Source of the DNA: Nonomuraea rubra
GTDB taxonomy: Bacteria; Actinomycetota; Actinomycetes; Streptosporangiales; Streptosporangiaceae
Reading direction: 5' to 3'
Length of the DNA: 64,000 nucleotides
NCBI RefSeq assembly: GCF_014207985.1
Contig: NZ_JACHMI010000001.1
Span: 1,905,001 to 1,969,000, forward strand
Part shown: one piece after another, positions 33,907 through 53,363 of the stretch
Layout: every line of letters begins with the position of its first letter
Numbering within the stretch: position 1 is the stretch's first letter
The notes under the pieces: model-generated
What the model saw: only the letters and a program-made list of their open reading frames with translations
Databases searched by the model: none
Told to the model about the DNA's origin: nothing
Translations under genes and position numbers: made by a program

Positions 33907-35199
33907 TCAGCCGCCGAGCGGCCGCCCCAGCGCGAACGCGGCTTCCAGCACCAGCCGGGCCGTTTCCCGGGCCGCCTGGTGGGCCACCTCCGGCAGCACC
34001 GAGACGTAGGTATCGGCGGTCAGCACGATGCTGGCATGCCCCAGCATTGCCTGCACCACCTTCAGGTCGGTGTGCGCGGCCAGGGCCAGCGTGGCGGCGC
34101 CATGCCGCAGGTCGTGCAGCCGGATCGGCGGTTGCCCGGAGGCCGCCACCAGCCGGCGGAATCGGCCGGTGAGGTAGTCCGGCCGCAGCGGCGCACCCGT
34201 CGCGGTGGTGAACACGTATCCCGAGTTCTGCCAGCGGGTGCCCGCCGTCGCGCTCAGCTTCTCTTGCCGCTCGCGGTGTCGGGTCAGCACCCGTACGGTC
34301 TGCGCGTCCAAGGCGACCACTCGGCAGCTGGTGGCGCTCTTCGGCGGACCGACCACGACCTGGCCGTCGGCGTGCACTCGCTGCTGCGTCACTGTCAGCT
34401 CGGCGGCCTGCAGGTCGACGTCCGTCCAGCGTAGCCCGGCCAGCTCGCCGCGGCGTAGTCCGCGCAGAGCGGCCAGCCACCAGGCGGCGTACAGGTGATC
34501 CTGCGCGACGCTGGCCAGGAAGGCTGCGAGCTGTTGTTCGGTCCAGACCGCCACCGCCGGACGTTCGGCTGTTTGCTGCCAGCGAGCGGTCCGCCCGGCG
34601 GTCCAGACGACCGGATGCGGCCGCCGTGGATGGGGCAGCTCGGCGCCGTTGGCCGGGTTGACCGGGATCAGCCGGGCACGCACCGCGGCGTTCAGCGCGG
34701 TCCGCAAGGTGGCGTGGATCCGCACCATGGTCGCGGGCGACAGATGGCGGCCGGTCGGCGAGGGACGGGACGCCAGCATCGCGAGGAGGCCGTTGACATC
34801 GCGCGAGGTGAGCTGGTGGAGCAGGATCCGTCCCAGCTGCGGGATGAGGTAGAGGCGGATGTGCGTGGCGTAGCCCTGCCGGGTCGACGGACGCAGGGTC
34901 TTCTTGCTGGTGAGCCAGCGTGCCAGCCACTGCCCGAGTGTGCATCCGGCGGCTCCCGCGCCCTCGCGGTCGGCAGCTATCAGGGCACGGCCTGCCGTCT
35001 GCGCTTCCTCGGGGTCGGCGTAACCGCCCTGGCGGACGCGCTGCCGCTGCCCGTCCAGGCCGCGTACTTGCACCGCGAAATACCAGCTGCCGTGATCGTC
35101 ATCCGCCAGCAGACGCGGACACGCCACCCCTCGCTGACGTCCCGTTTCTGCATCCACGCAACCGCATCGCCTGCTGACCTGCACACGAGTCTGTGCCAT
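33907..35199 (-). CDS. Tyrosine recombinase / integrase (intact copy)
   Basis: 430 aa from ATG 35199 (RBS GGAGGTGGGA just upstream). An N-terminal Cys-bearing arm ([20 protein letters not shown]) and AP2-like arm-binding region precede the SAM-like domain ([38 protein letters not shown]). The catalytic domain has Arg in [14 protein letters not shown] (~250), HDLRHG (His362, Arg365), GHASI (His388) and the nucleophile Tyr398 in DTYVSV, so it should be active. It is the integrase type of actinomycete integrative elements that use tRNA genes. The IS256-type insertion immediately upstream has displaced its promoter. Confidence 0.93.
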
Positions 35200-36107
35200 C
35201 TGTCCCACCTCCACCCGGTCACGTCCCGTCGAGTGGTGTAGAACCGGCCCTCATCGGCGCGTCGCCTTTAACGACAGAGGGCCATCGCGTGAGTCTCTGT
35301 GTGAAACCGCCAAGTGACACGCAGAGGAGAAGCACACGATGGCCCTGGACCAGTCTGCCCTGTTAGAAGTCCTTTCGGTACTGAAGAACTCCGAGGCGAG
35401 CGAACGTATCCGGCACGCCGCCGAGACCATCTACCAAGCCCTCATCGAGGCCGAGCTGACCGCGGTGATCGGCGCCGCCCCGAACGAGCGCACCCCGACC
35501 CGGGTAGCGCAGCGCAACGGGCACCGCCCCCGCACGCTGACCACCACCGCGGGTGATCTGGAGCTGCAGGTTCCCAAGCTGCGCACCGGCTCGTTCTTCC
35601 CCTCGCTGCTGGAACGCCGCCGCCGCGTGGACCAGGCCTTGTTCGCCGTGGTGATGGAGGCCTACCTGCACGGCGTGTCCACCCGCAAGGTCGACGACCT
35701 GGTCAAAGCCCTCGGCGCCGACACCGGCATCTCCAAGAGCGAGGTCTCACGGATCTGCGCCGACCTGGACGAGGAAGTATCCGCCTTCCGCGACCGCTCG
35801 CTCGCCGAGCAGAGGTTCCCCTACCTGTTCCTGGACGCCACCTACTGCAAGGCGCGAGTGAACCGGCGGGTGGTCTCCCAGGCCGTCATCGTGGCCACCG
35901 GCGTCAGCGCCGACGGCCGCCGCGAAGTCATCGGCTTCGCCGTGGGTGACAGCGAAGACGGCGCCTTCTGGACCGCGTTCCTGCGCTCGCTCAAGGCGCG
36001 CGGCCTGGCCGGAGTGCAGCTGGTCATCTCCGACGCGCACGCCGGCCTGGTCGCCTCCATCGGCGCAGTGCTGCTCGGCGCGGCCTGGCAGAGGTGTCGC
36101 GTGCACT

Positions 36108-39527: not shown

Positions 39528-40685
39528 GTGAACTTGCAGGCGCAGATTGAGCTCATTACCAACCCGCAGGACTTTGTCCGGCTGTGTAATGCGGTTCTGC
39601 AGGCAGAACATGGGGACGACTTCCTTCCGATTGATGATGACCGGGCCGATAGGGGAAACGACGGCTTCTTGAAGTCCGAGCGGAGAATGTTTGCTGCACA
39701 CTGTTTCAAGCGAGCGCAGAACCGCAGCATTGACGCCGAGATCAGGACGAAGATGGCTGGCGACCTGAAGAAGGCGATCCAGCTCAAGCAAGATCGGGCT
39801 TGGGATATAAACCGCTGGACCTTCCTTTCGAACTATCCCATGCCGGAACATATCGCCGCCAGTATGGTGCAAGCTGGTAATGCCGCTGGTATTGAAGTCA
39901 GTTGGCGAGGGCCGGAGTATTTTGCGGATAGACTTCAGCGATTCAAGGGCTTGCGAGAGCTCTTCCCGAATCTCATGGCTAACGAGGTCGCCGAGAAGCT
40001 TGACGATGTCATGAGGCGCTTGGATTCACTCGCCCCGCAGAAGCCGCTGGCAATAAACTGGGTGCCCAGAAACCCGGATGAGCAGCGGGCACTGATCGAG
40101 CAGATGCCACGCGCCTGGGAATACCTACTCTTCGCCGGTGTGCTCTTGCAAGGGCGTGTCGCTCTAGATCTAAGGTGGCGCGACTATCAGAATGGTTATG
40201 GGCGCCGGACTGGCAGGTATCTAGACCGACCGTCATCTCTGGCCCAGCTTGAGGGGGTGTTAAATGACGGACTTCTGATAGCGAAAGGACTAAATGCAAT
40301 CTTTGCGTCCGACATAAATGTCCGCGCCTTTGGGTCGCCGGGATTCGCTGGTGATGTCGGTACCATCGTGCAATTCGCTGGCCGCATAGTCTCCACTTGC
40401 GAAGACCTTCTCAATCTTGCAAGTGAGGTTCGAGGAACGGTCTATGCGGACGAGTTTCGTCAGGCCGCGGATATGTTATCGGCGATCCTTGGGCAACCCA
40501 TAGGTCAAATTCTTTTCTTCATGGATCGAGTCATCCGGGAATTTGGAAATATTCCCGCGTGGCTTGCGACGCCCAACCCGCCGCCGCGGCATATCGAGAT
40601 CACTTTAGAAATATCTGTAGACGAACGCAGATTGAAGGCGTTCACCAAGGAGGTTGCTCGAGTGCGCAGGCGGTTGAGAATCTAG
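39528..40685 (+). CDS. Putative defence protein with Mrr/PD-(D/E)XK-like N-terminus
   Basis: 385 aa from GTG. The N-terminal ~130 residues read FVRLCNAVLQAEHGDDFLPI, then RADRGNDGFLKSERRMFAAH and CFKRAQ. The spacing of GND-G to HCFKR resembles the D...(E/Q)xK active site of Mrr-like restriction nucleases, with Cys-Phe-Lys where QxK is usual. WTFLSNYPMPEHIAASMVQA and GIEVSWRGPEYFADRLQ follow. The C-terminal ~220 residues are helical with a final beta segment (RHIEITLEISVDERRLKAFT) and are not recognised. The gene is clearly AT-richer than its neighbours (codons such as ATA, TTT, AGA), pointing to recent acquisition. It lies beside the Wadjet operon, so a defence role is plausible but inferred. 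Confidence 0.7.
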   Translation: MNLQAQIELITNPQDFVRLCNAVLQAEHGDDFLPIDDDRADRGNDGFLKSERRMFAAHCFKRAQNRSIDAEIRTKMAGDLKKAIQLKQDRAWDINRWTFLSNYPMPEHIAASMVQAGNAAGIEVSWRGPEYFADRLQRFKGLRELFPNLMANEVAEKLDDVMRRLDSLAPQKPLAINWVPRNPDEQRALIEQMPRAWEYLLFAGVLLQGRVALDLRWRDYQNGYGRRTGRYLDRPSSLAQLEGVLNDGLLIAKGLNAIFASDINVRAFGSPGFAGDVGTIVQFAGRIVSTCEDLLNLASEVRGTVYADEFRQAADMLSAILGQPIGQILFFMDRVIREFGNIPAWLATPNPPPRHIEITLEISVDERRLKAFTKEVARVRRRLRI

Positions 40686-40779
40686 GCGACCTGGCAAGAG
40701 TCTTCGAGTTCGTGGAGATCGCCAGGTATGGCTATGTCGTGGACGAATAGGCATGCTCCGGAGGCGTGGAACACTGGCC

Positions 40780-41020
40780 GCGGGCCGACCACGACCTGGC
40801 CGTCGGCGTGCACCCGCTGCTGTGGCACCGTCACCTCCGCCGCCCGTAGGTCGATGTCCGTCCAGCACAGTCCGCCCGGCTCGCCCCGCTGCAGATGGCG
40901 CAGCGCAGCCAACCACCAAGCGGCGTACAGGCGGTTCTGCGCGATGCTGGCCAGGAAGGTCGCGAGCTGCTGTTCGGTCCAGACCGCCACCGTCGGGCGC
41001 TCTCCCGATGACCGCCCGAA
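40780..41020 (-). pseudogene. Internal fragment of the same integrase type (third copy)
   Basis: The minus strand encodes [20 protein letters not shown], then [20 protein letters not shown] and EPGGLCWTDIDLRAAEVTVP, then [14 protein letters not shown]. This matches residues ~212-286 of the intact integrase at 33907-35199 with substitutions (the Arg I region is LQRGEPGGL). Neither end of the gene is present. It has replaced the rest of the small ORF that starts at 41099. Confidence 0.85.
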
Positions 41021-41099
41021 TGGTTTCACTGCGGGTACGAAACTCGTCAACCACAGGTCGGAGCTGTCGTAGTTGCTCTTGACGCGGTGCAGCGCTCAT
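40992..41099 (-). pseudogene. Truncated fifth ORF coupled to jetD
   Basis: An ATG at 41099 overlaps the jetD stop (ATGA), the same junction used by the other genes of the operon. The reading frame MSAAPRQEQLRQLRPVVDEF followed by RTRSETIRAVIGRAPD looks native for ~36 codons and then runs out of frame into integrase-derived DNA. I read it as the start of a fifth operon gene cut off by the integrase fragment. Its identity is unknown. Confidence 0.5.
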
Positions 41100-42331
41100 G
41101 TCGGTTCCGATCTCATGGGCGACTCCTGGTCGGTCAAGATGCGCCGGAGAACGGCGTCGTGTTCCTGGAAGAGGACGTACTCGGGCAGTCCATGTGCTGC
41201 TTTTAACGTCGGATCAGTGTGAGGGCCGAATGGCACCGCGGAGGGTGCCGATCCGACCTCGGCGATGATCTCCGCGTCCATCGCTACGAGTTCGGCGCCG
41301 TAATGCTGAGCAATGTAGTTGGCGACCTGAAAGCCGTCGGTATCGAGGTCACCCGCGTACCGCAGGGCGATGTTCTGGTCGAAGGCGAGCTGGAGCAGGG
41401 CGTGATCGACGCCCCTTAGATGGCCGCTGGTACAGACGAGGGGAAGGTCGCTGTCCAAGGCCATGGCCGCTTCGAGAACGGACGGATTCTCGACGACGGT
41501 CAGTGTTTGTTGGGCCAAGATGGGTGGGTGCAGGACGAGATCGAGGAGGGTTACCGCCACCGGCGTCGTCGCCTCCCGAAGCCGCCGGTCCATGACGCCG
41601 TCTCCGACGACCTTGACCCGGTACAGGAGAACTGTGGCCGATAGCCGGTCCGCGACGATGCCGACGTTCGAGAGCAGGGTGCGGACAAGATCGGGCCGGC
41701 CGGGTTCTGGCTGCCCGGCGAATTCGGCGACGGCAGAGACGAGTCGTGCGCCGTTGGGGGTGTTCAGGTCGAAGTAGTGGGGGTCGCCGGCGCTGTCGTG
41801 GGCGAGTTTGGGCAGGCTGACGGGAGGCCGGACGGGAAGTTGCTTGATGACTTCGGCCAGGGCAGTGATCAGTCGGCGGAGCGCGGGTTCGTCGTCGCTG
41901 ACCCCGGCTGAGCGCATGCGCGCGACCAAGCGTGGTAGCTGGGGGAGTTGGTCGGTAGCGTACGCCCAGAGGTCCTCGCGCAGCGTTGCCGCATCCCTGC
42001 GGGCGGCCGCTCGGTTCACGATCTGCTTACCGGTGGCCTTCTCTACGAGAGGGATCAGCTCGTGCGGAGAGATCTCGAGCACCGACAGCAGTTCCCGGAT
42101 GGGGACGTGCGCGATTGTGCCCGTCATGGCCACGGCTGATCGGCTGCGGCGGCGCCGGGTAGTGGTGTCCAACCAGGACCGCAGTTCGGCGATCGCGGAC
42201 GGCGGAAGATCGCGCACCTTGAGCGTGGCGATGGCATCGCTTTCGTCTCCCGAGCACAGGCGGTCGTGGAGGGCGGCCCACAGCGGGGCGAAGTCGGGAT
42301 CGTCCACGATCAGGTCGAGGCCGTGGCTCAT
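41096..42331 (-). CDS. jetD: Wadjet JetD: DUF2399/Toprim nuclease subunit
   Basis: 411 aa from ATG 42331 (ATGA overlap with jetC). The C-terminal Toprim-like domain shows TVVENPSVLEAAM (catalytic Glu), LVCTSGHLRGVDHALLQLAF and RYAGDLDTDGFQVANYI (Asp-x-Asp at ~329-331), the DUF2399 signature. The N-terminal part (ATLKVRDLPPSAIAELRSWL and following) matches TIGR02679. In Wadjet, JetD is the topoisomerase-VI-like nuclease that cleaves the circular DNA extruded by JetABC. All key acidic residues seem present. It is the last complete gene of the operon. Confidence 0.9.
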   Translation of the reverse strand: MSHGLDLIVDDPDFAPLWAALHDRLCSGDESDAIATLKVRDLPPSAIAELRSWLDTTTRRRRSRSAVAMTGTIAHVPIRELLSVLEISPHELIPLVEKATGKQIVNRAAARRDAATLREDLWAYATDQLPQLPRLVARMRSAGVSDDEPALRRLITALAEVIKQLPVRPPVSLPKLAHDSAGDPHYFDLNTPNGARLVSAVAEFAGQPEPGRPDLVRTLLSNVGIVADRLSATVLLYRVKVVGDGVMDRRLREATTPVAVTLLDLVLHPPILAQQTLTVVENPSVLEAAMALDSDLPLVCTSGHLRGVDHALLQLAFDQNIALRYAGDLDTDGFQVANYIAQHYGAELVAMDAEIIAEVGSAPSAVPFGPHTDPTLKAAHGLPEYVLFQEHDAVLRRILTDQESPMRSEPT

Positions 42332-45300
42332 GACGGGCTGTTCAGCTCGAGGGTGAGAGGTCGCGGATCGCCGTGTCCTTCCCACAGCCAAGGGACAGTG
42401 ATGCGTTGCCGTCCTGCCGCGATGACCTCGTGGACCATGGTGCGGCCGGATTCTCGCTTGATCATGGGGGATATGGACGGCGTGGTAGCCAGCACGTCGA
42501 ACTTCCATGATCGAAGCAGTCCGAGGACTTGGCGGAGGTTCGGCTCGTCGAAGGCGGCGTCGATCTCGTCGATCGACAGTAGCCGGGGTCCGCGATAGGT
42601 GTCGCCGGAGTACATCGACCAGGCGGCGGCCAGAAGCGGCAACATGGTGGCGAGTCGGCGCTCCCCGGTAGACAGCGATTCCAGCGGGTTGGAGCGGGAG
42701 GAGACCTTTCGGAACGCTTCACTGCTGCCGTCGCCGAAGGAAGAGTGGGTGACGGAGATGTCCCACTCATGCCAGGCCCGATAGTCGAAGGTATGAGCGA
42801 CGCGGTCGGGCCACGGTTCGCCGACCGTTTCGTCCATCCGCTGTCGCAGGACCGTGTACATCTGCTCGAAGGTGGCCTCGGAGGGTGGCTGAGTGATGAG
42901 TTTGATCATGTGTTGGGCGTCTTCGTCCTTGCGGACATCCCAGTCGACCTGTACGCCCACGTTGGCCACCCCGGTACGGACTTCCCGAAGGGTTCCCCGG
43001 ATCTGCCGGACCAGCTCACGCGCGGCATCCCGGCGCACCTGGATATCGCGCCGCAGTTTGGTGAACATGCCGGTCTTCATGGTCTGTTTGACATCGTCAC
43101 GCAGGTCTTCTTCGAGTTGGGCGATGCTCGCGTGCAGGGCTTGAAGCGCGAGATCGAGGTCGTCACCCCGGGTGGCGTCCGGTTCGGCGATGATGGCCCG
43201 TCGCCATTCGGTGTCCTCCACAGTGACGAGGACGACCTGGCGGTTGAAGCGGGCGAGGGCAGCGCTGGCGGTGCGGACGCTGTTCTCCAGCGCGACGAGT
43301 GCTCGGTTGCGGTTCTGGACGAGGGTGTTCAGGCGTTCGGGGCCGGAGGGTTTGCCGGCGAGCAAGCGGTAGGCCCAGGAGAGGCCGGCGGTCAGGTTTG
43401 CAGGGCGGCCCGATTCGTCGGCCGGCAGATCGTCCGGCAGCGTAGCAAGGCGTTCGTCGACCAAGCGGCCGAGCAGGCGTAGAGAGTGGTCTCGACGACG
43501 CTCGGCCTCGGCGCGATGCGGTTCGATGCCCTCCAGGGTGGAGCGGGCCCGCACCGCGTCCACCTCAGCGGTCTGCCGTTCGGTAAGCAGCGTTTCCGCC
43601 GCGTCCTTGGCTTGCTGAAGCTGACTGGCCAGATTCTGACGTTCCTCGAACAATTCCTGGTATTCGGTGCCGTACAGCTCACGAATCTTCGCGACATGCG
43701 CGACCATCTTCGTCGCCGCGAGCCCCGCTTTCATGGCGGCCTCGGTGGCCTTGGCGGCGGCGGTTTGCAGGGCGGCGGCGTTGCGGGCATCGCGTTGGAC
43801 GAGCTGGATCAGCTCACCGCAGCGCCGGGCGGCGGCGGAGCAGCCGTCGATGGCACGGTCGAGGGACGAGACCGCATGGAGATGCTTGTCAAGCGTGTCC
43901 CGTGAGGTGGGCAAGAGGGATCCGTCAGGCAGGGCCGCCGCCTGGTTCAGCGTGCGGAGTGCCCTCTTGACGGCACCCGTGGCTTGGGTGTGTCGTCCGG
44001 AGGCGTCGATGACGCTCGCGCGCGCTCCGATCAGGGTGGCGTCGGCGCTGTCTTCGACCCGGTGTGCCTCTACCACGGCGGCCAGCAAGAGGTGGGGGAA
44101 CGCCGACCGTTCCGCGTCGGCCTCCTCCTGCGCACGGGTGGCCTCCGCATGCGCGGTATCGCTTACGGCCGCGATCTGGGCAAGTTCCGTCGCTTCCCTC
44201 TCCGCTTCGGTGGCACGGGTGTCCGCCGCGAGCGCGGTTTGCTCGGCATGCTGCATGTCTCGTTGCGCCGCGGCCAGTCGTGCGGAGCGCTGCGCGGCTT
44301 TGGCCTCCAGACCTGCCAGGACCCCGGCAAGCACTCGGTCGGCTTGAGTGGTACGGCGGACGGCCGCCTGCTCGGCGCTGGCCAGGGCTGTGGTGAGCTC
44401 GGCTCGCTGCTGGCGGGCGGCGCTGAGTGGGCCGTCCGGTGGGACGCCGTCCCGCTCCTTGGCGGCGGCTTCCACATCCCGGTTCCGTGCCGCCAGCTCT
44501 TCTTGGGCCTCGGCGAACTCACCCTCGAGCCGCGCCAGCTTCTGCTCAAGTTCTGCGACGCGCTGACGGCGGGCGCGCTCACGAGCCGTCCGCCCGATAT
44601 AGGCCGCGCGGTAGCCGGATGGGCAAGAGGAGGTGAGCACGCCATGCGTCAACGTGCTGGGGACCTGGCCGGCTTCGCATGCGTCGACCGGGATGGCGCG
44701 CAGCACGTGTGCGATCTGGTCGGCTGACAGATCCGGGTGGCTTTCCGGACTGAGCAGGTCCGCGAGCGTCCGTCCGGCGGCCGGTGTGCGTGCGGTGATG
44801 ACGAGGTCTCCGGTCACCAATCGGCCATCAGAAGTGACCAATGCATCGAGGAGGCCGGACACCAGCAGCGCGCCCTCCAGCCGGTCGGCTTTCTGCGGAA
44901 CCAGGTGATCGGCGAAGTCGACCAGAGCCCACAGCGGGACGCCGTCCTCGGGGCGCCGGTTCCGCCACACCGGCGCGGGCGGAACGGGGGCTGCCTGCCG
45001 AACCTGTGCCAGCTCAGTTTCGACGGTGTCGATGTGATCAGCGATCTGCTCCATCCGGTTGTGAACAGCAGACACCCGATCGTGGAGATCGGGGACAGCG
45101 TGGGCATAAGCGTTGTGCGCGGCCAGGTAGACCGTGGTGGGATCCAGCGCGTCGAGTTGTGCGGACGGGAGGTGTTCCGCAGGGCCTGGCAGGGCAATGG
45201 TGCTCGGGTCGAGGAACACCAGAGAACTTCGCCAGCGGTGCGTCTTCGTGAGCCAGTCGCGTGCGGCCAGGACGGCAGCGGCCGCACTGTCGGAACGGCG

Positions 45301-47331
45301 CTGCCGGGCGGCGGCCACCTCGTCTTGAACGGTGGCCAGTTCTGCTGTGTGGTCTTCGTAAGCTTGCGAACGCGCCTGCTCGTCCGCCGTGGACTCACTC
45401 TCGATCTCGACGCTGACCTCTTGAAGCCGTACAGCGGCCTTCTCCGCTCGGACGGACTCGGCTCTGTGCGAGGCGCGGGCGTCGGCCGCAACCTTGGTGG
45501 CCTGGCGGGCCAGCGCCGCATCGGTCGTGGCGCGTTCCCGGCGCCCTGCCACATCTATGCGGTCGCGAGTCCTGGAGGCGGCCAACTCCAGCCATGCGCT
45601 CACCTTGCCGGGTGACAAGCGTCCATCTGCCGAGGTGGGGTCGGGAGTACCGAGTTCAGGGGGCGGGGGCTCGATGTGGCGGAGAGCCGCAGACCAGATG
45701 GCGAGTTCGTCGGTGAACCCGGATTCGGCCTGCCGACCGGCTCGCGAGGCATCCTCGACTGCCCCGCGGGCCTTGTCCTCGTCCTCCTCGGCACGGCGCC
45801 TGATGTCGGCCATTGCCCTTTCGGTGTGCTGTGCCTCGCTGTGCTGATGGAGAGCGTCCTGAACCTGGCGAATTTGCCTGGTGCGGGCCTCGACCCATGC
45901 GAGCGGTGTCGCGCATAGCTGCGGCAGGTCCAACGATGGAGCGGAAACTGTCGGCTCGCCAATCGCAAGGTCGTGGAGGGCGGCCAAGAGTCGATCGAAA
46001 GCCGATTCCGCTCCTGCCACGGACGAGTCGCGCCGTAGTTGATCGGCGAGGTCGTTGAGGTGGCGCTGCGCCTCGGCGGCGGAACTGGCTGATTCCTGAG
46101 CCTGGTCGGCGGCCTCGGATGCGCTGTTAGTGGCCTGCTCAGCCCGGGTGTCCGCCTCTCTCGCCGCCACGGTGAGCTCGTCGGCTCTTTCCTGCAGGAG
46201 CGGCAGCTTCGCGCCGACGTGTTCGCCGAGGACCTGGTCGGCGGCTCCGAGCTCGCCCTCCAGCCGAGAGATCGCGGTGCGGGTCGCTTCCAATCTGGTC
46301 CCGGCCGAGGCTTTGGCGCTTTCCGCCTTCTTCAGCTGCTCGGTCGCTTCCCTGGCACGTCGCGTCTGGTCGTCATAGGCGTTGTTTGCCGATGACAGCT
46401 CAGCTGCCTGAAGCTGGCTGACGGCGTTCAGATAGCGGCCGTAAAGGCGGTGCGCGTCCTTCAGGAGGCGGGCTTCGCTGCGCGCACGATCGAGCTGGTT
46501 CTCGAGTTCAGCGATGCGTTCCATTGCCTCGGCAATGAGCTTGAGTTGATCGGGTTCGAGGGCGGGCAAGGCGTCGGTGAGGACCTCACGCATCTTCACC
46601 GGTGAGATCGCTTCGGCCGTACGGACGCTACGCAGGCTCCGAAGCACGCTGATGAGCGCCTCGAACTGGACCTCGTCCAGAGGGGTGAACAGCCGGGTCC
46701 GGACCGCCTGCCGGTAGCTCCGCTCGTCGCCGACGGATTGCAGATGTGCTGTCGCCTGCGGGCGCAAGGCCGATGACGAGGTGAACAGCTCTCCTTGAAG
46801 CGTGGCGAGTTGTTCCGCCAGGTCAGCGATCCTGATCGCCTCGCGATCGCGCTGCAGGATCAGGTCATGGCCCACCCGGCCGGGCACGATGAAGAAGGCA
46901 CGTTGCAGTTCGCTGACGGTCGCCCGCAGCCACAGACCGGTCGTCAGGTACGACGTCTGACCGCTCAGGCTGTCGCGCAGGCCGTACTCCAGCCACCACG
47001 CCCCCGTCCGGTCCTCACGCTCGTTCCGATCGGTGTGCCTGCTGGTGAGAGTCCCGCTTGCCTTGCCCGAAACCGACAGAGCCGTCTGGGAGGTTTCGGC
47101 GTCGAGCAACACGGTGATCAGCATGGACGCGGTCAAGGACTTTCCGGAGCCGTTGGGACCGGCGAGGGCGAGCCACCCATCGGCGAACAGCAGCGTTTCG
47201 TCCGCCCATGCCCAGGAGTTGACCACGCCGGCGCGCGTGGGTTGCCAACGGTCATCGGCGCCCGGGACTCCGAGCGTCGCTATGTCGCCCGCGGCGAGCA
47301 GGCGTGCTGGGTGCTCCGTCTTCGTCATCAT
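42328..47331 (-). CDS. jetC: Wadjet JetC: SMC/SbcC-like ATPase (TIGR02680 type)
   Basis: 1667 aa from ATG 47331, chosen because the ATGATGA junction overlaps the jetB stop. Walker A GPNGSGKS is at 58-65. Two long coiled-coil arms (Ala/Glu/Arg-rich, about 280-560 and 900-1400) flank central globular sequence. The C-terminal head has FRKVSSRSNPLESLSTGERR (signature) and LLSIDEIDAAFDEPNLRQVL (Walker B and D-loop), then LATTPSISPMI. This is the SMC-like motor that, with JetA/B, extrudes DNA loops and senses small circular DNA. Length and architecture fit TIGR02680. Confidence 0.93.
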   Translation of the reverse strand: MMTKTEHPARLLAAGDIATLGVPGADDRWQPTRAGVVNSWAWADETLLFADGWLALAGPNGSGKSLTASMLITVLLDAETSQTALSVSGKASGTLTSRHTDRNEREDRTGAWWLEYGLRDSLSGQTSYLTTGLWLRATVSELQRAFFIVPGRVGHDLILQRDREAIRIADLAEQLATLQGELFTSSSALRPQATAHLQSVGDERSYRQAVRTRLFTPLDEVQFEALISVLRSLRSVRTAEAISPVKMREVLTDALPALEPDQLKLIAEAMERIAELENQLDRARSEARLLKDAHRLYGRYLNAVSQLQAAELSSANNAYDDQTRRAREATEQLKKAESAKASAGTRLEATRTAISRLEGELGAADQVLGEHVGAKLPLLQERADELTVAAREADTRAEQATNSASEAADQAQESASSAAEAQRHLNDLADQLRRDSSVAGAESAFDRLLAALHDLAIGEPTVSAPSLDLPQLCATPLAWVEARTRQIRQVQDALHQHSEAQHTERAMADIRRRAEEDEDKARGAVEDASRAGRQAESGFTDELAIWSAALRHIEPPPPELGTPDPTSADGRLSPGKVSAWLELAASRTRDRIDVAGRRERATTDAALARQATKVAADARASHRAESVRAEKAAVRLQEVSVEIESESTADEQARSQAYEDHTAELATVQDEVAAARQRRSDSAAAAVLAARDWLTKTHRWRSSLVFLDPSTIALPGPAEHLPSAQLDALDPTTVYLAAHNAYAHAVPDLHDRVSAVHNRMEQIADHIDTVETELAQVRQAAPVPPAPVWRNRRPEDGVPLWALVDFADHLVPQKADRLEGALLVSGLLDALVTSDGRLVTGDLVITARTPAAGRTLADLLSPESHPDLSADQIAHVLRAIPVDACEAGQVPSTLTHGVLTSSCPSGYRAAYIGRTARERARRQRVAELEQKLARLEGEFAEAQEELAARNRDVEAAAKERDGVPPDGPLSAARQQRAELTTALASAEQAAVRRTTQADRVLAGVLAGLEAKAAQRSARLAAAQRDMQHAEQTALAADTRATEAEREATELAQIAAVSDTAHAEATRAQEEADAERSAFPHLLLAAVVEAHRVEDSADATLIGARASVIDASGRHTQATGAVKRALRTLNQAAALPDGSLLPTSRDTLDKHLHAVSSLDRAIDGCSAAARRCGELIQLVQRDARNAAALQTAAAKATEAAMKAGLAATKMVAHVAKIRELYGTEYQELFEERQNLASQLQQAKDAAETLLTERQTAEVDAVRARSTLEGIEPHRAEAERRRDHSLRLLGRLVDERLATLPDDLPADESGRPANLTAGLSWAYRLLAGKPSGPERLNTLVQNRNRALVALENSVRTASAALARFNRQVVLVTVEDTEWRRAIIAEPDATRGDDLDLALQALHASIAQLEEDLRDDVKQTMKTGMFTKLRRDIQVRRDAARELVRQIRGTLREVRTGVANVGVQVDWDVRKDEDAQHMIKLITQPPSEATFEQMYTVLRQRMDETVGEPWPDRVAHTFDYRAWHEWDISVTHSSFGDGSSEAFRKVSSRSNPLESLSTGERRLATMLPLLAAAWSMYSGDTYRGPRLLSIDEIDAAFDEPNLRQVLGLLRSWKFDVLATTPSISPMIKRESGRTMVHEVIAAGRQRITVPWLWEGHGDPRPLTLELNSPS

Positions 47332-48647
47332 GGGTTTCCTGGATTTTCGGCAGTGAGAGGAAGGGGATCCTGAGCGAGCACGGCACCGGACGGTTCGCCC
47401 TGCGCCTTCGTGGTGGCATTGGGGCGGACTCGTACTCGCCACAGGTGAATCCCGGGGGTTGGATGCCAGATGTCTTGATCTTCCCGGGCCTCGCGGAGCA
47501 GCCCTACTGCGACCAGTTCAGCGGCCGCGGCGCGGGCGAGGACCGGCAGCCGCCCGGAATAGGCCGCGGCCCACCGCGGCAGCGCTTCACGAGCCTTTTC
47601 CAGCAAACCCAGCACTTCGCTGATGGGGAGCGGCGCCATGGCATCGACGCGGTAAGGGAGAGCCGCAAGCAGTGCGAGTGCGGCCTGCCGTTCGGTGCGG
47701 CGACCGTTCGGGAACATGGTGCCGGTTCCGACTCCAGTCGGGTCGGCGACCTGCCACCAGTCCCGCCTGACCGTGGCTGCGTAACCGAGGGATCCGATGA
47801 CATTCAGGGCGCGTTCCCGACCCGACAGCGTGTGCAGGTACGGCGAACCCTCGGTCTGATCATCGCTGGGATCGGTCGCCGGGTCATCGACGAGCCGACG
47901 CATCATTCGCAACCTGCGATCCTCCAAGGTCGGCGGCGTACCTGCATCTGTGACATGCTCACGATCCAGCAGGGATCGCGCCGACAGAGCGTTGACATGC
48001 CGCTCGGGCGGGAGAGCGTCCAGCCCCAGCAACACCGGGGACAGAGAGGAGAACTTGGCGGCCAAGCGATCCCGGGCGGCGGTGACCACCAGATCACTGT
48101 CCTCGTCGTCCACGGCATGGTCGAGGTCGGCGTCCACCGCAATTGTCCCTTCGGCCACCAGCAGCTTGAGCGCATCCACAAGGTGCTGCCGGTTCCGCCG
48201 TGCCGCCTGCTTGCCGACACCGTCCGGCGCAACGACCTGGAACTCGGGGAGCGTGCCCTGTGGCGCCTCCGATGCGCAGACGTGCGCGATTGCCTGGAGC
48301 AACTCCCGTAGGCTCATCCGGGAGCGTCGCCAGAGTTGTTCGCACACCAGCGCGACGCAAACGAGAACATCTTTGGGCGCCAAGGGGCCATCGCCGCGTC
48401 CACGCTGTACCCGTGGTCCTCGATCAGCGGGAACATCCACACGTCGCTTGTGCAGGCGGACCAGTTCGGCAACCTCCAAGACCTCCAGGGTCCAACCGAA
48501 CTGGAGCCGGAAGAACTCGGCCAGATCACGGCGCCCCTTGACAGCCGCCCGGTAGCACTCGGGATCGCACTCGGCGCGAAGCCGCCCGGTCGCGACCAGC
48601 GTCCGAGCCGCTTCACGCAGGTCGGGGTCGAGATAGAGTCCGCTCAT
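47328..48647 (-). CDS. jetB: Wadjet JetB: DUF2398 (TIGR02678) subunit
   Basis: 439 aa. The N-terminus MSGLYLDPDLREAARTLVAT followed by RDLAEFFRLQFGWTLEVLEV fits DUF2398, with winged-helix-like segments (ELVRLHKRRVDVP, RMSLRELLQAIAHVC, RQHLVDALKLLVAEGTIAVD). In Wadjet this kleisin-associated (KITE-like) subunit bridges JetA and the JetC heads. It overlaps jetA (upstream) and jetC (downstream) by 4 bp each, so expression is tightly coupled. Confidence 0.88.
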   Translation of the reverse strand: MSGLYLDPDLREAARTLVATGRLRAECDPECYRAAVKGRRDLAEFFRLQFGWTLEVLEVAELVRLHKRRVDVPADRGPRVQRGRGDGPLAPKDVLVCVALVCEQLWRRSRMSLRELLQAIAHVCASEAPQGTLPEFQVVAPDGVGKQAARRNRQHLVDALKLLVAEGTIAVDADLDHAVDDEDSDLVVTAARDRLAAKFSSLSPVLLGLDALPPERHVNALSARSLLDREHVTDAGTPPTLEDRRLRMMRRLVDDPATDPSDDQTEGSPYLHTLSGRERALNVIGSLGYAATVRRDWWQVADPTGVGTGTMFPNGRRTERQAALALLAALPYRVDAMAPLPISEVLGLLEKAREALPRWAAAYSGRLPVLARAAAAELVAVGLLREAREDQDIWHPTPGIHLWRVRVRPNATTKAQGEPSGAVLAQDPLPLTAENPGNP

Positions 48648-50203
48648 GCGACCATTCCGTCCCGCTCGGCCGTCGAACGGAACGCTCCAGCCGCAGTGCG
48701 GGATTCGATAGAGGTGACACGCACCCTCAGATCTGGACCTGTCAAGCGTCCATCGGCCAATTCGACCGTCACAGTACGGCCGGCGACACCCGGCCGCACC
48801 TCGACCAGGACGCTCGCGCCGTCAACAGGCACGATCCCACGACCTGCCTTGCGGTCGAACTGCGCGAGTGCGGTCTCGATCGCCCCCAGCAGCACGGCGG
48901 CAGTCTCCGAATCCAGACCCGCGAAATGATCCAGCCCCACCTCTCCATCCGTGATCAGGAGCGCGGCCAGGCGGCGGCGCCGGGCAGCCTCGGCGGCGGC
49001 TTCGGTCACCGCGGCCGCGCGTGCCGCCGACGTGTCGGCCACCTTGCGCGGGCGCCCGCTGGCGCGCCCCTGCCGCTCGTGCTCACGCAACGTCACCTCG
49101 ACTCGGTACGGGAAGTCACCTGCGACCGCTGCCGTGCCGTGGGCCACATCCTCCTCCACGCCCCCGGCCATCACGTGCCACGCCGGCCAGTCGCCGAAGG
49201 CCGCCGCGAAGACACGCCTGGCCTCCTCGTCGCTCGGCTGGCGGAACAGACTCCGAGCGAGCACATGGAAGTCCAGCCCGAGATCCGAGCCGCGGCGGCG
49301 TGCTGAATAGCGGCGCTCGATGGCCACCAGCAACGTGTACACCGCCCCGGTCGCGGAGGAGATCAGCCGGTGAACGGTGCCGTCCGGCGCGAACCAAGCC
49401 TCAAGGTCCGATATCCAGCGCACCCGCTCCTCGACCCAATACTGCTGGTCCCGTACGTCGATCAGTCCCGCGTGTGCGACGGCCGCCTCGACAATCCGTC
49501 GATGCCCTGTGCCGCGCAGGTCGATCAGCGCCATCTCCACTCGCCGCAAGGCGCGTTCGTATTCGCGCGGGAACTGTCGAAGAGCCTCGATCACTCGGTC
49601 CCGGTTGTCGCCGAACAGTTCATCGTCGGTTACGTCTGACTGCACCATCTGCGCCAATGCGGTGTAGAAGTCGGCGGTGACCCGCTGAAGCTCCTCAATT
49701 CGAGTCCGCACGTCGTCCAGATCCATGGGCAGGATGCCACTCTGATCTGTCAGATGATCGATAAGTTTGCGAATGGTCAACTCGACGCTGTCGAGCAACC
49801 TGCTCGGAAGCTGTAGCGCTCGCCGCGTATCGACCACAGCCGCCCGGACCGCGGCCACAATGCCCCGTCCCTTGCGCGTCAGCGCCCATGCCTCCTGCCG
49901 GACGATCAGGCCCTGGTAGTTGCGCACGGGTGCCGTGTAGTCGCGAAACGGCTCGGCGAACCCCCACTTGGCGAGCTGATCCAGCGTCTCCCGCAACTCC
50001 GGCTCCGGCAGCGGATCGTGAAATCCGACGCTGCGCACCTGCGCCGTGATCTCCTCCGGGCTTGACATGGGCCCTCGGGTCGACAGCTCTTCGAGAGCGG
50101 CCAAGAGCGCCGTGTACCGTTCCCGCGCCAGATCGTCGGGTAGGGCGAACACTGTCCAGTCAGCAGGAAGAACCGCTTGCCACCATCGCCGGGGCTGCTC
50201 CAC
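48644..50203 (-). CDS. jetA: Wadjet JetA: DUF2397 (TIGR02677) kleisin-like subunit
   Basis: 519 aa from GTG 50203, with a near-perfect RBS (TAGGAGGT, 4-5 bp upstream). It starts MEQPRRWWQAVLPADWTVFA and contains WGFAEPFRDYTAPVRNYQGL, a winged-helix block, helices (VTADFYTALAQMVQSDVTDD) and a C-terminal region DTSAARAAAVTEAAAEAARR followed by a small beta domain with VTVELADGRLTGPDLRVRVT. This is the DUF2397 pattern, the kleisin of Wadjet-like SMC complexes. It is the first gene of the operon; the promoter should lie in 50204-50544. Confidence 0.88.
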   Translation of the reverse strand: MEQPRRWWQAVLPADWTVFALPDDLARERYTALLAALEELSTRGPMSSPEEITAQVRSVGFHDPLPEPELRETLDQLAKWGFAEPFRDYTAPVRNYQGLIVRQEAWALTRKGRGIVAAVRAAVVDTRRALQLPSRLLDSVELTIRKLIDHLTDQSGILPMDLDDVRTRIEELQRVTADFYTALAQMVQSDVTDDELFGDNRDRVIEALRQFPREYERALRRVEMALIDLRGTGHRRIVEAAVAHAGLIDVRDQQYWVEERVRWISDLEAWFAPDGTVHRLISSATGAVYTLLVAIERRYSARRRGSDLGLDFHVLARSLFRQPSDEEARRVFAAAFGDWPAWHVMAGGVEEDVAHGTAAVAGDFPYRVEVTLREHERQGRASGRPRKVADTSAARAAAVTEAAAEAARRRRLAALLITDGEVGLDHFAGLDSETAAVLLGAIETALAQFDRKAGRGIVPVDGASVLVEVRPGVAGRTVTVELADGRLTGPDLRVRVTSIESRTAAGAFRSTAERDGMVA

Positions 50204-50544: not shown

Positions 50545-51423
50545 ATGAGCATCAACGCTGACACCAGTTCAGCCGCCGACGCGGGAGTCAATCTTCAGAC
50601 CCGCTCAGTCCCGGCCCAGCGCCACCCCGCCGACGCGGAGGCGCCCCAAAGCTCGTCCATGAGTGACAAGCGCATCGACCCGGATAGCCCGCGTCAGTCC
50701 CTGACCGCGGCTCAGCTCGAAGGCCGCGCATGCATCCAATGTGGGAGCGAGGAGCGGCATCTAGCACCTGCAGGCACTCTGCTGGACGTCAAGGTGGTCG
50801 AGTGCTACACGCATCAACAGGAACGCCGTCTCGCCGCCAGCCCAGCCGAATGGCTCACTGTGAGCCCCTGCCCGGCTTGGTGCCGCGATGAGCACAGCGG
50901 CTCCGATCATCCGGATGACCGGGAGCACAACAGCCTGTACTTGAACACTGCGCTGCAGACGATGCCATACATCAATTACGGGCATGGGGACAAGCCGGAG
51001 TACAAGCCGACCGGCATCATGACGGATCTGGTGCAGCATTATCGCGAGGCCGAGCCGCGCATCTGCTTCGGAGACACCGGAGATCACGCCAGCTACTACA
51101 TGACCCTCGACGAGGCCCAGGAGATCGCCCTTCACCTTCTCGTGCTCGTCTCGGCGGGACGCGACCGGTCCGCGGTTCCGGAACCGCAGTCGGTCATCAG
51201 CGAGAGGACAGGCTGCCGACCATGGTGCACTCGCCACTGGCCAGAGGATGTGTGTGACAGCGGTGCCATAGAAGGGGCATGGCTCACCCACGATGGCGAT
51301 GATGCGCAGATCTGGTTCCATGAATACGGTGACAACGGGACGGCGCTGCCCGACGCCGAGCGGCTGGCATGCGCGATCGTCCGCCTCGCTGTCCTGGCCC
51401 GAGGCAGGACAATGAGCGTGTAG
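50545..51423 (+). CDS. DUF6907-type protein with two tandem Cys/Trp modules
   Basis: 292 aa. After a polar N-terminus there is a short zinc-ribbon-like CIQCG...CYTH. Two related modules follow: CPAWCRDEHSGSDHPDDREH ... MTLDEAQEIALHLLVLVSAG, and CRPWCTRHWPEDVCDSGAIE ... LPDAERLACAIVRLAVLARG. The C-P-x-W-C pattern with nearby Asp/His and the closing helix is the hallmark of DUF6907, small proteins common on actinomycete integrative elements and plasmids. A duplicated form is less usual. It is divergent from the Wadjet operon and adjacent to the right-hand integrase module, supporting an element-borne origin. The function is unknown. Confidence 0.75.
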   Translation: MSINADTSSAADAGVNLQTRSVPAQRHPADAEAPQSSSMSDKRIDPDSPRQSLTAAQLEGRACIQCGSEERHLAPAGTLLDVKVVECYTHQQERRLAASPAEWLTVSPCPAWCRDEHSGSDHPDDREHNSLYLNTALQTMPYINYGHGDKPEYKPTGIMTDLVQHYREAEPRICFGDTGDHASYYMTLDEAQEIALHLLVLVSAGRDRSAVPEPQSVISERTGCRPWCTRHWPEDVCDSGAIEGAWLTHDGDDAQIWFHEYGDNGTALPDAERLACAIVRLAVLARGRTMSV

Positions 51424-51731: not shown

Positions 51732-51776
51732 GACTTCTAATCCGACGGTCGCAGGTTCGAATCCTGCAGGGCGCGC
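51732..51776 (+). other. 3' half of tRNA-Arg(UCU), probable integration (att) site
   Basis: The sequence holds the anticodon loop CTTCTAA (anticodon TCT), the variable region, a perfect T-arm (GCAGG TTCGAAT CCTGC at 51751-51767) and the start of the acceptor 3' strand. The upstream half of the tRNA is absent: the 5' anticodon stem does not pair properly. Only the part normally duplicated by tRNA-targeting tyrosine recombinases is present, and an integrase gene ends 74 bp away. This strongly suggests an attachment-site remnant rather than a functional tRNA. Confidence 0.75.
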
Positions 51777-51849
51777 TACTCCACCAGCGGATACCGCAGC
51801 CGCGCCCGCTCGCTGGCGCGGCATGGGGCAGATATGAGGCAAAGCTGAG

Positions 51850-53136
51850 TCAGCCGCCGAGCGGCTGCCCTAGCGCGGATGCGGTGCTGAGCACGAGCCG
51901 GGCCGTTTCCTGGGCGGCGTGGTGGGCCACCTCGGGCAGCACCGAGACGTAGGTGTCGGCGGTCAGCACGATAGTGGCGTGCCCGAGCATGGCCTGCACC
52001 ACCTTCAGATCGGTGTGCGCGGCCAGCGCCAGCGTCGCGGCACCGTGCCGCAGGTCGTGCAGCCGGACCGGAGGTTGCCCGGAGGCGGTCACCAGCCGGC
52101 GGAACCGGCCGGTGAGGTAGTCCGGCCGTAGCGGCGCACCGTCCGCGGTGGTGAACACGTAGCCCGAGTCCTGCCAGCGGGTGCCCGCCGCCGCGCTCAG
52201 CTTCTCCTGCCGCTCGCGGTGCCGGCTCAGCACCCGCACGGTCTCCGCGTCCAGGGCGACCACCCGGCAGCCGGCGGCACTCTTCGGCGGCCCGACCATG
52301 ACCCGGCCGTCGGCGTGCACCCGCTGCTGCGTCACCGTCTGCTCTGCGGCCTGCAGGTCGACGTCCGTCCGGCGCAGCCCGGCCAGCTCACCGCGGCGCA
52401 ACCCGCGCAGCGCGGCCAGCCACCACGCGGCATATAAACGATCCTGCGCGATGCCGGCCAGGAACGCCGCGAGCTGTTGTCCGGTCCAGACCGCTACTGC
52501 TGGACGTTCTCCCGTTTGCCGCCAGCGGGCGGTCCGCCCGGCGGTCCAGACGACCGGATGCGGTCGGCGCGGCCGGGGCAGCGCCGCTCCGTTGGCCGGG
52601 TTGATGGGCATCAGCCGGGCGCGCACCGCCGCGTTCACCGCGGTCCGCAAGGTGGCGTGGATCCGCACCACGGTCGCGGGCGACAACCGCGGCCGGTCGG
52701 CGAGGGACGGGACGCCAGCGTCGCGAGCAGTCCGTTGACATCGCGCGAGGTCAGTTGGTGCAGCAGCATCCGTCCCAGCCGCGGGACGAGGTAGAGGCGG
52801 ATATGCGTGGCGTAGCCCTGCCGGGTCGACGGACGTAGAGCGTCCTTGGTAGCCAGCCAGCGTGCCAGCCACTCACCGACGGTGCATCCGGCTCCTGCGC
52901 CGTCGCGGTCGGCGGTGGCCAAAGCCCGGCCTGCCGCATGCGCCTCCTCGGGATCGGCGTAACCACCTTGGCGGATACGCTGCCGCTGCCCGTCCAGGCC
53001 ACGTACCTGCACCGCGAAGTACCAGCTGCCGTGATCGTCATCTATCGGTAGACGCGGACACGTCACGCCTCGCTGACGTCCCGTTGCCGTATCCACACAG
53101 CCGCATCGTCTGCTGACCTGCACCCGAGTCTGCCAT
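51850..53136 (-). pseudogene. Tyrosine recombinase / integrase, second copy, frameshifted
   Basis: The sequence is a close paralogue of the intact integrase at 33907-35199 over its full length. The N-terminal part ([20 protein letters not shown] through [20 protein letters not shown]) and the C-terminal part ([31 protein letters not shown], Tyr in DTYVSV, to ALGQPLGG) are in different frames because one base is missing near 52686, where the intact copy reads GRHLSP. A second 2-bp deletion just after the start codon (ATGGCAGACT versus ATGGCACAGACT) also disrupts initiation. It is inactive unless these are sequencing errors. Confidence 0.9.
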
Positions 53137-53363
53137 CTGCGCCACCTCCGCCCCTCACGGTGTGCGACGACAGACGCTTCAGGTAGGGCTCGCCTCCGAC
53201 CAGGGATGCCCCAGGTCAAGTGTCCGAAGGACGGGGAGGCTCCGTGGTGCGGCGGTCGGTGTTGCCGCGATAAGTCCCAACCGGGCAGACCAGGGGTTGT
53301 TGGCGTGCGGGGCGAGTGCTGCGGCGGGGAGGCCCGCGGGCTGCATCTGAGATGCGCGTCTGA

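What the first reader, a model, noticed from the sequence alone, without database searches (positions are those of the whole stretch)
41096..50203. Complete Wadjet (JetABCD) operon on a mobile island
Four minus-strand genes joined by ATGA overlaps encode DUF2397, DUF2398, a 1667-aa SMC/SbcC-like ATPase and a DUF2399 Toprim protein in the A-B-C-D order. This is the actinobacterial (TIGR02677-02680 type) version of the anti-plasmid Wadjet system. Walker A (58-65 of JetC), signature and Walker B, and the Toprim DxD of JetD are intact, so the system should work. It lies between two integrase modules, so it is probably carried by an integrative element that excludes competing plasmids.
Basis: partly seen in the sequence, partly recalled or inferred. 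Interest (0 to 1): 0.8.

Follow-up and report, generated by a model that had tools for sequence, protein, structure and literature searches.

The report
Long-armed Wadjet defence operon on island
This is an intact four-gene bacterial operon of the anti-plasmid Wadjet type, from an atypical branch whose DNA-motor protein appears to have arms more than a hundred residues longer than usual, and it sits at one end of a large island that looks mobile.

Summary
The four genes are real and intact: JetA, JetB, JetC and JetD overlap by ATGA and match Pfam and PADLOC type II Wadjet profiles. The operon belongs to a separate branch. Of 47 relatives from genome contigs, 44 hold all four genes, always in A-B-C-D order. 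In trees JetC, JetA (weakly) and JetD of the branch group apart. JetC is 1651-1853 aa in the branch rows used, against 1335-1500 aa in 36 other type II JetCs. The extra residues form two mostly helical predicted blocks, at similar distances either side of the hinge. Key ATPase and JetD Toprim residues are invariant, the JetD model resembles JetD and topoisomerase VI-A, and dN/dS is 0.13-0.24, so the system is probably working. The genome's other type II locus is JetABC without JetD. Best reading: a long-armed variant of Wadjet II, useful for testing whether longer arms help the motor pass obstacles. No activity was measured.

The parts
48644..50203 (-). JetA, DUF2397 (kleisin-like subunit, role recalled), 519 aa, GTG start after an AGGAGG
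47328..48647 (-). JetB, DUF2398 (KITE-like subunit, role recalled), 439 aa, ATGA overlap with jetA; diverged (93.6 bits, while 42 of the 55 DUF2398 rows of the genus search score above 300)
42328..47331 (-). JetC, SMC-like ATPase of 1667 aa with lengthened arms; Walker A 58-65, hinge about 779-913 (my reading of the model), signature 1554, Walker B 1588-1589
45154..45588 (-). extra block in the N-terminal arm of JetC (residues 582-726) relative to ordinary type II JetC; 121 of residues 582-715 (134) are helix in the model
   Evidence: profile-profile alignment; model
44023..44373 (-). extra block in the C-terminal arm of JetC (residues 987-1103); 114 of 117 residues are helix in the model
41096..42331 (-). 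JetD, DUF3323 + DUF2399 Toprim nuclease, 411 aa; E281, D328 and D330 invariant; the only DUF2399 match found in this genome
51732..51777 (+). 46-bp exact copy of the 3' part of tRNA-Arg(TCT): right-hand att copy of the island
50545..51423 (+). DUF6907 gene between jetA and the att copy; related DNA (73% over 310 bp) lies near the left end of the island
40780..41007 (-). tyrosine-integrase fragment directly downstream of jetD; the ORF 40605-41099 that overlaps jetD by ATGA runs through it in another frame and is probably not a fifth gene
51850..52872 (-). diverged tyrosine-integrase paralogue just outside the att copy (DNA similarity 51827-53159, 87.6% to the long copy)
33907..35214 (-). long tyrosine-integrase copy (435 aa) inside the island

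Best explanation
A working type II Wadjet-like system of a long-armed branch, carried 1.5 kb inside one end of a ~195-kb integrative, conjugative-type island in tRNA-Arg(TCT). By analogy with studied Wadjets (family knowledge and PMC10586767), JetC, JetA and JetB form a paired SMC motor that extrudes DNA; when extrusion completes on a circular molecule, JetD, a topoisomerase VI-A-like Toprim nuclease, cuts it, so small circular plasmids are lost. Shown here: operon, intact motifs, JetD fold by prediction, conservation, purifying selection, longer distances between JetC landmarks, island borders. Inferred: coiled-coil pairing of the extra blocks, loop extrusion, plasmid cleavage and benefit to the island. 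Proposed: the extra 117-144 residues per arm by profile alignment (130-177 by landmark distances), about 17-26 nm at 0.15 nm per helical residue, widen the hinge-proximal lumen, so that the motor threads past larger DNA-bound obstacles.
Against: I found no activity data for any member of this branch. All four subunits miss the TIGR02677-02680 cut-offs. DUF2399 is matched only over profile positions 19-102 of 152. The arm model has pTM 0.31, so pairing of the two inserts is not shown; gap placement within coiled coils is uncertain (MAFFT puts the blocks at about 501-650 and 976-1085, against 582-726 and 987-1103 by hhalign). Long rows under 1550 aa (5 of 44 loci) were left out of the length counts. 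Support for the JetA long clade is only 0.527. [quoted passage not shown] Three of 54 genus genomes have a full-length DUF2398 of the low-scoring type, and no phage record and no plasmid record with more than 20% coverage matched.
Confidence: 0.72

Rival explanations
1. An ordinary type II Wadjet in which arm length is a neutral lineage trait; everything works as in Neobacillus vireti Wadjet-II and the extra residues do nothing.
For: ATPase motifs, hinge and JetD active site are conserved; a type I chimera carrying the much larger nvJetC elbow-to-hinge segment still cleaves DNA (PMC12647877, passages).
Against: Arm length is narrow and discrete over many genera (636-677 in 43 long rows, 506-550 in 36 others), and both arms differ by similar amounts at similar distances from the hinge, which suggests constraint rather than drift.
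Confidence: 0.35
2. The long branch targets something other than small plasmids: large or protein-loaded circular elements such as excised conjugative islands, or phage DNA.
For: It sits in an island with conjugation-type genes, and the same tRNA end is copied elsewhere in many genomes of the genus (at least 36 of 54 genomes, this one included, show a further 39-49 bp copy in the rows listed).
Against: No direct evidence; JetD and the ATPase motifs look conventional.
Confidence: 0.2
3. A chromosome-folding (condensin-like) complex rather than a defence system.
For: The genome's other type II locus is JetABC without JetD and is syntenic in two relatives that also lack JetD there, so type II complexes can be kept without their nuclease.
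Against: JetD is found in 47 of 47 loci of this branch with invariant Toprim residues in the 21 aligned, and the distribution is patchy (3 of 54 genus genomes).
Confidence: 0.05
4. A decaying island passenger that no longer works.
For: Integrase fragments and transposase genes lie nearby; some relatives have shortened JetC frames (5 of 44 under 1550 aa).
Against: All four frames are open here, motifs are intact and dN/dS is 0.13-0.24.
Confidence: 0.05

Closest known systems
Wadjet type II of Neobacillus vireti (nvJET; that PDB 9qe0/9qe1 are nvJET is inferred, the entries only say JetA and JetC)
   Same: JetC clearly homologous; JetA weakly (phmmer E 0.0011); same head, hinge and ATPase layout
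   Different: JetC is 1371 aa against 1667; about 368 residues between two aligned points (head and hinge) that are 526 apart here
Canonical actinobacterial type II Wadjet (TIGR02677-02680), including the second locus of this genome at 7.656-7.663 Mb
   Same: gene families and A-B-C order; JetC profile-profile probability 100%
   Different: six canonical JetCs score 1064-1495 bits with PADLOC JetC2 PDLC00553 against 569 here; ordinary arms; the copy in this genome has no JetD
Wadjet type I / MksBEFG (C. glutamicum nuclease 8b7f, P. aeruginosa JetD 7til)
   Same: JetD fold: N-terminal domain plus Toprim
   Different: different JetA, JetB and JetC families; PADLOC type I hits are weak

Membership tests
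Wadjet type II | four genes DUF2397, DUF2398, SMC-like ATPase, DUF2399 in one operon | tested here: met
   same order in 44 of 47 relatives
Wadjet type II | JetC Walker A, signature and Walker B intact | tested here: met
   29 rows
Wadjet type II | JetD Toprim glutamate and DxD; topoisomerase VI-A-like fold | tested here: met
Wadjet type II | restriction of circular plasmid DNA | not testable with these tools
   needs experiment
   all four below
Ordinary type II JetC | hinge-to-signature arm of 506-550 residues (range in 36 JetCs) | tested here: not met
   642 in the window
Integrative and conjugative element | tRNA direct-repeat borders with adjacent integrase | tested here: met
Integrative and conjugative element | conjugation genes inside (TraG/VirB4 P-loop, PrgI, TrwB-like, Replic_Relax, NlpC/P60) | tested here: met
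   five proteins only, completeness of the transfer system not checked
Integrative and conjugative element | excision and transfer as one unit | not testable with these tools
   one element or an accretion of several is undecided

The most novel reading that the evidence does not exclude
The branch is a distinct mechanistic class of Wadjet II in which the hinge-proximal part of both arms was lengthened together, perhaps in steps (about 1650-1730 aa, then about 1770-1850 aa), so that a channel-less hinge is compensated by a wider lumen through which large DNA-bound obstacles are threaded. This would be a natural arm-length series within one defence family.
Probability: 0.28. Interest if true: 0.7.

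Novelty: new variant of a known kind. Interest (0 to 1): 0.45.

Why it matters
How SMC motors pass obstacles is an open question, and PMC12647877 (passages) proposes that Wadjets without a hinge channel lengthened their coiled coils to thread obstacles directly. A branch with discretely longer arms, next to ordinary type II complexes (both kinds even in this one genome), gives natural material to test that. It also shows that the NCBIfam cut-offs miss this operon; most source-named relatives are called only 'SbcC/MukB-like Walker B domain-containing protein' or less.

Tried and rejected
Fifth operon gene: ORF 40605-41099 overlaps jetD by ATGA, but it runs into an integrase fragment, and no family of neighbouring ORFs of 80 aa or more was found in more than 9 of the 48 loci examined, window included; rejected.

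A resident plasmid as a test of Wadjet tolerance: contig 2 (96.7 kb) shows no repeat between its two ends, begins with an integrase gene and, from sequence starts recognised by eye (recalled, not searched), carries phage-like and housekeeping genes. It gave no evidence of being a plasmid, so the idea was dropped.

Mobility as a property of the whole branch: 3 of the 45 loci given to ARAGORN have a tRNA gene in the DNA held (L096 and L101 were not given). The phage collection gave no match; three records of the plasmid collection matched over 17-20% of JetC. The two integrase copies as borders: rejected in favour of the att copies.

Rows dropped; three of 47 loci (L092, L096, L101) hold matches to JetC and JetD only; L092 has 27 kb of DNA and a split JetC, so it looks disrupted. 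Five loci with JetC frames under 1550 aa (L065, L068, L081, L088, L089) were left out of the JetC trees and length counts; this filter is on the trait itself. Other JetCs under 1200 aa were left out too, and the 12 P-numbered rows were picked by me. All JetCs were cut to 60 residues before Walker A. Five rows at 99% identity or more were dropped before the counts (the window counted twice, two loci fetched twice, two near-identical pairs); the trees still contain such near-duplicates. One search measured arms by text patterns, missed most rows and was superseded. One search used wrong coordinates for the first row and was redone. Roots of the trees are midpoint or an arbitrary row, so the direction of change is not shown. 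One search leaves out two partial rows.

Not in print: searches of the open library listed no paper whose title or abstract start describes a long-JetC type II branch (I saw listings, plus passages of four papers: PMC10586767, PMC10482375, PMC12647877, PMC12287153). The N. vireti structure paper is not held and supplements were not readable.

Full report
What is there. Four minus-strand genes at 41096-50203 encode JetA (519 aa), JetB (439), JetC (1667) and JetD (411), with an ATGA overlap at each of the three joints. Pfam finds DUF2397, DUF2398, SbcC_Walker_B, DUF3323 and DUF2399, each above its cut-off, and PADLOC's best matches are the type II models of JetA, JetB, JetC and JetD. NCBIfam finds TIGR02677, 02678, 02680 and 02679, but all four below the curated cut-offs.

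Why the scores are low. A search with JetC found 193 proteins at E <= 0.001 among the 8000 candidates scored; the best 120 are listed, most of them about 1640-1730 aa, from many actinobacterial genera. A pattern-limited scan of genome contigs gave 47 loci. Of these, 44 hold matches to all four genes, each time in the order A-B-C-D on one strand; the other three hold C and D only. In a tree of 91 JetC rows (with five near-duplicates) the 48 long rows and 7 still longer ones form one clade with support 1.0, apart from 36 other type II JetCs. In the JetA and JetD trees the 46 long rows (the window twice) are also together, with support 0.527 and 0.927. Sampling: the 36 others come from the same genus (19) and from a phylum sample searched with TIGR02680 (17), in which 31 of 296 genomes had a match, 21 over the cut-off. 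None of the 17 loci I fetched from that sample has a long JetC; the other matching genomes were not measured. Long rows with frames under 1550 aa (5 of 44 loci) were left out beforehand.

Where the extra length is. After removing five rows at 99% identity or more, the distance from Walker A to the hinge landmark is 752-863 residues (median 766) in 43 long rows, 815-862 in 7 longer rows and 567-741 (median 589) in 36 others. From hinge end to signature it is 636-677 (642), 666-679 (670) and 506-550 (512). From signature to Walker B the median is 32 in all three groups. Profile-profile alignment places the extra residues at 582-726 and 987-1103, plus 17 in the head; the multiple alignment places them at about 501-650 and 976-1085, so exact borders are uncertain. 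In the AlphaFold model of residues 270-1345 (mean pLDDT 84.7, pTM 0.31) 121 of residues 582-715 (134) and 114 of residues 987-1103 (117) are helix, and the blocks lie about 52-74 and 74 residues from the hinge as I read it. This fits a coiled-coil extension of both arms by about 117-144 residues (130-177 by landmark distances), some 17-26 nm. The pairing of the two blocks is inferred from these similar distances, not shown. The solved JetC 9qe0 has 1371 residues, with about 368 between aligned points that are 526 apart here.

The carrier. A complete tRNA-Arg(TCT) gene lies 195 kb to the left, and a 46-bp exact copy of its 3' part lies at window 51732-51777. Next to the tRNA, inside, is a 637-aa ORF with a tyrosine-integrase domain. 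Inside the island are NlpC/P60, Replic_Relax, TrwB-like, TraG/VirB4-type and PrgI proteins. In one relative (G030) DNA matching this genome about 4 kb beyond the att copy (window about 56043) lies only about 2.6 kb from the tRNA, which supports insertion; the stretches fetched from G018, G031 and G034 shared no such DNA on that side. In G014, whose contig length and JetC equal those of N. deserti locus L055, the operon lies about 1.56 kb from a 44-bp copy of the tRNA end. In the rows listed for 54 genus genomes at least 36, this one included, have a further 39-49 bp copy of the tRNA end (list cut), so this is a used insertion site. DUF2399 matches of ordinary type II Wadjets in G026 and G047 lie about 1.9 and 2.7 kb from such copies. 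The 195 kb may be one element or several.

The other type II locus. At 7.656-7.663 Mb the genome has canonical JetA, JetB and JetC but no DUF2399 protein; the genome's only DUF2399 match is the window's JetD. In the genus 19 of 53 DUF2398 loci considered have no DUF2399 match within 9 kb, some near contig ends. In G010 and G018 the locus is syntenic with this genome's (about 89% DNA identity over long stretches), and JetC is followed by genes that look by eye like a sugar transporter; in G042 the related locus has JetD.

Mechanism. By family knowledge and the review PMC10586767 (section 7 and passages), JetABC extrudes DNA and JetD cuts circular DNA when extrusion completes; that work is mostly on type I. 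PMC12647877 (passages) reports that Wadjet-II of N. vireti cleaves circular DNA, lacks a hinge channel and could not pass a bead obstacle, and proposes that long coiled coils allow threading. The present branch extends that trend, so I propose threading through a wider lumen; this step is speculative, and whether this branch has a hinge channel was not tested. Wadjet is already known to be common in Actinobacteria (42% of genomes; PMC10482375, passages), so the presence of a Wadjet is ordinary; the long-armed branch is the new part.

Noticed in passing
L007 (this genome, 7.656-7.663 Mb): A canonical type II JetABC without any JetD nearby, syntenic in G010 and G018; 19 of 53 DUF2398 loci considered in 54 genus genomes lack a DUF2399 match within 9 kb, some near contig ends. 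It may be a nuclease-less, condensin-like type II complex kept on the chromosome.
   Followed up: partly
L014:11887-11961 and window 51732-51777: tRNA-Arg(TCT) is a used insertion site in the genus; at least 36 of 54 genomes show a further 39-49 bp copy of its end in the rows listed, and Wadjet loci of G014, G026 and G047 lie near such copies.
   Followed up: partly
window 39528-40685: 385-aa plus-strand gene facing jetD with no Pfam match, also beside the operon in Nonomuraea deserti L055.
   Followed up: no
window 11836-12398: ARAGORN calls a tmRNA here overlapping a 737-aa frame scored as coding; probably a false positive.
   Followed up: no
P0120-P0124, P0126, P0128: A second, still longer JetC subgroup of about 1766-1853 aa (trimmed) that is sister to the window's clade.
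   Followed up: partly
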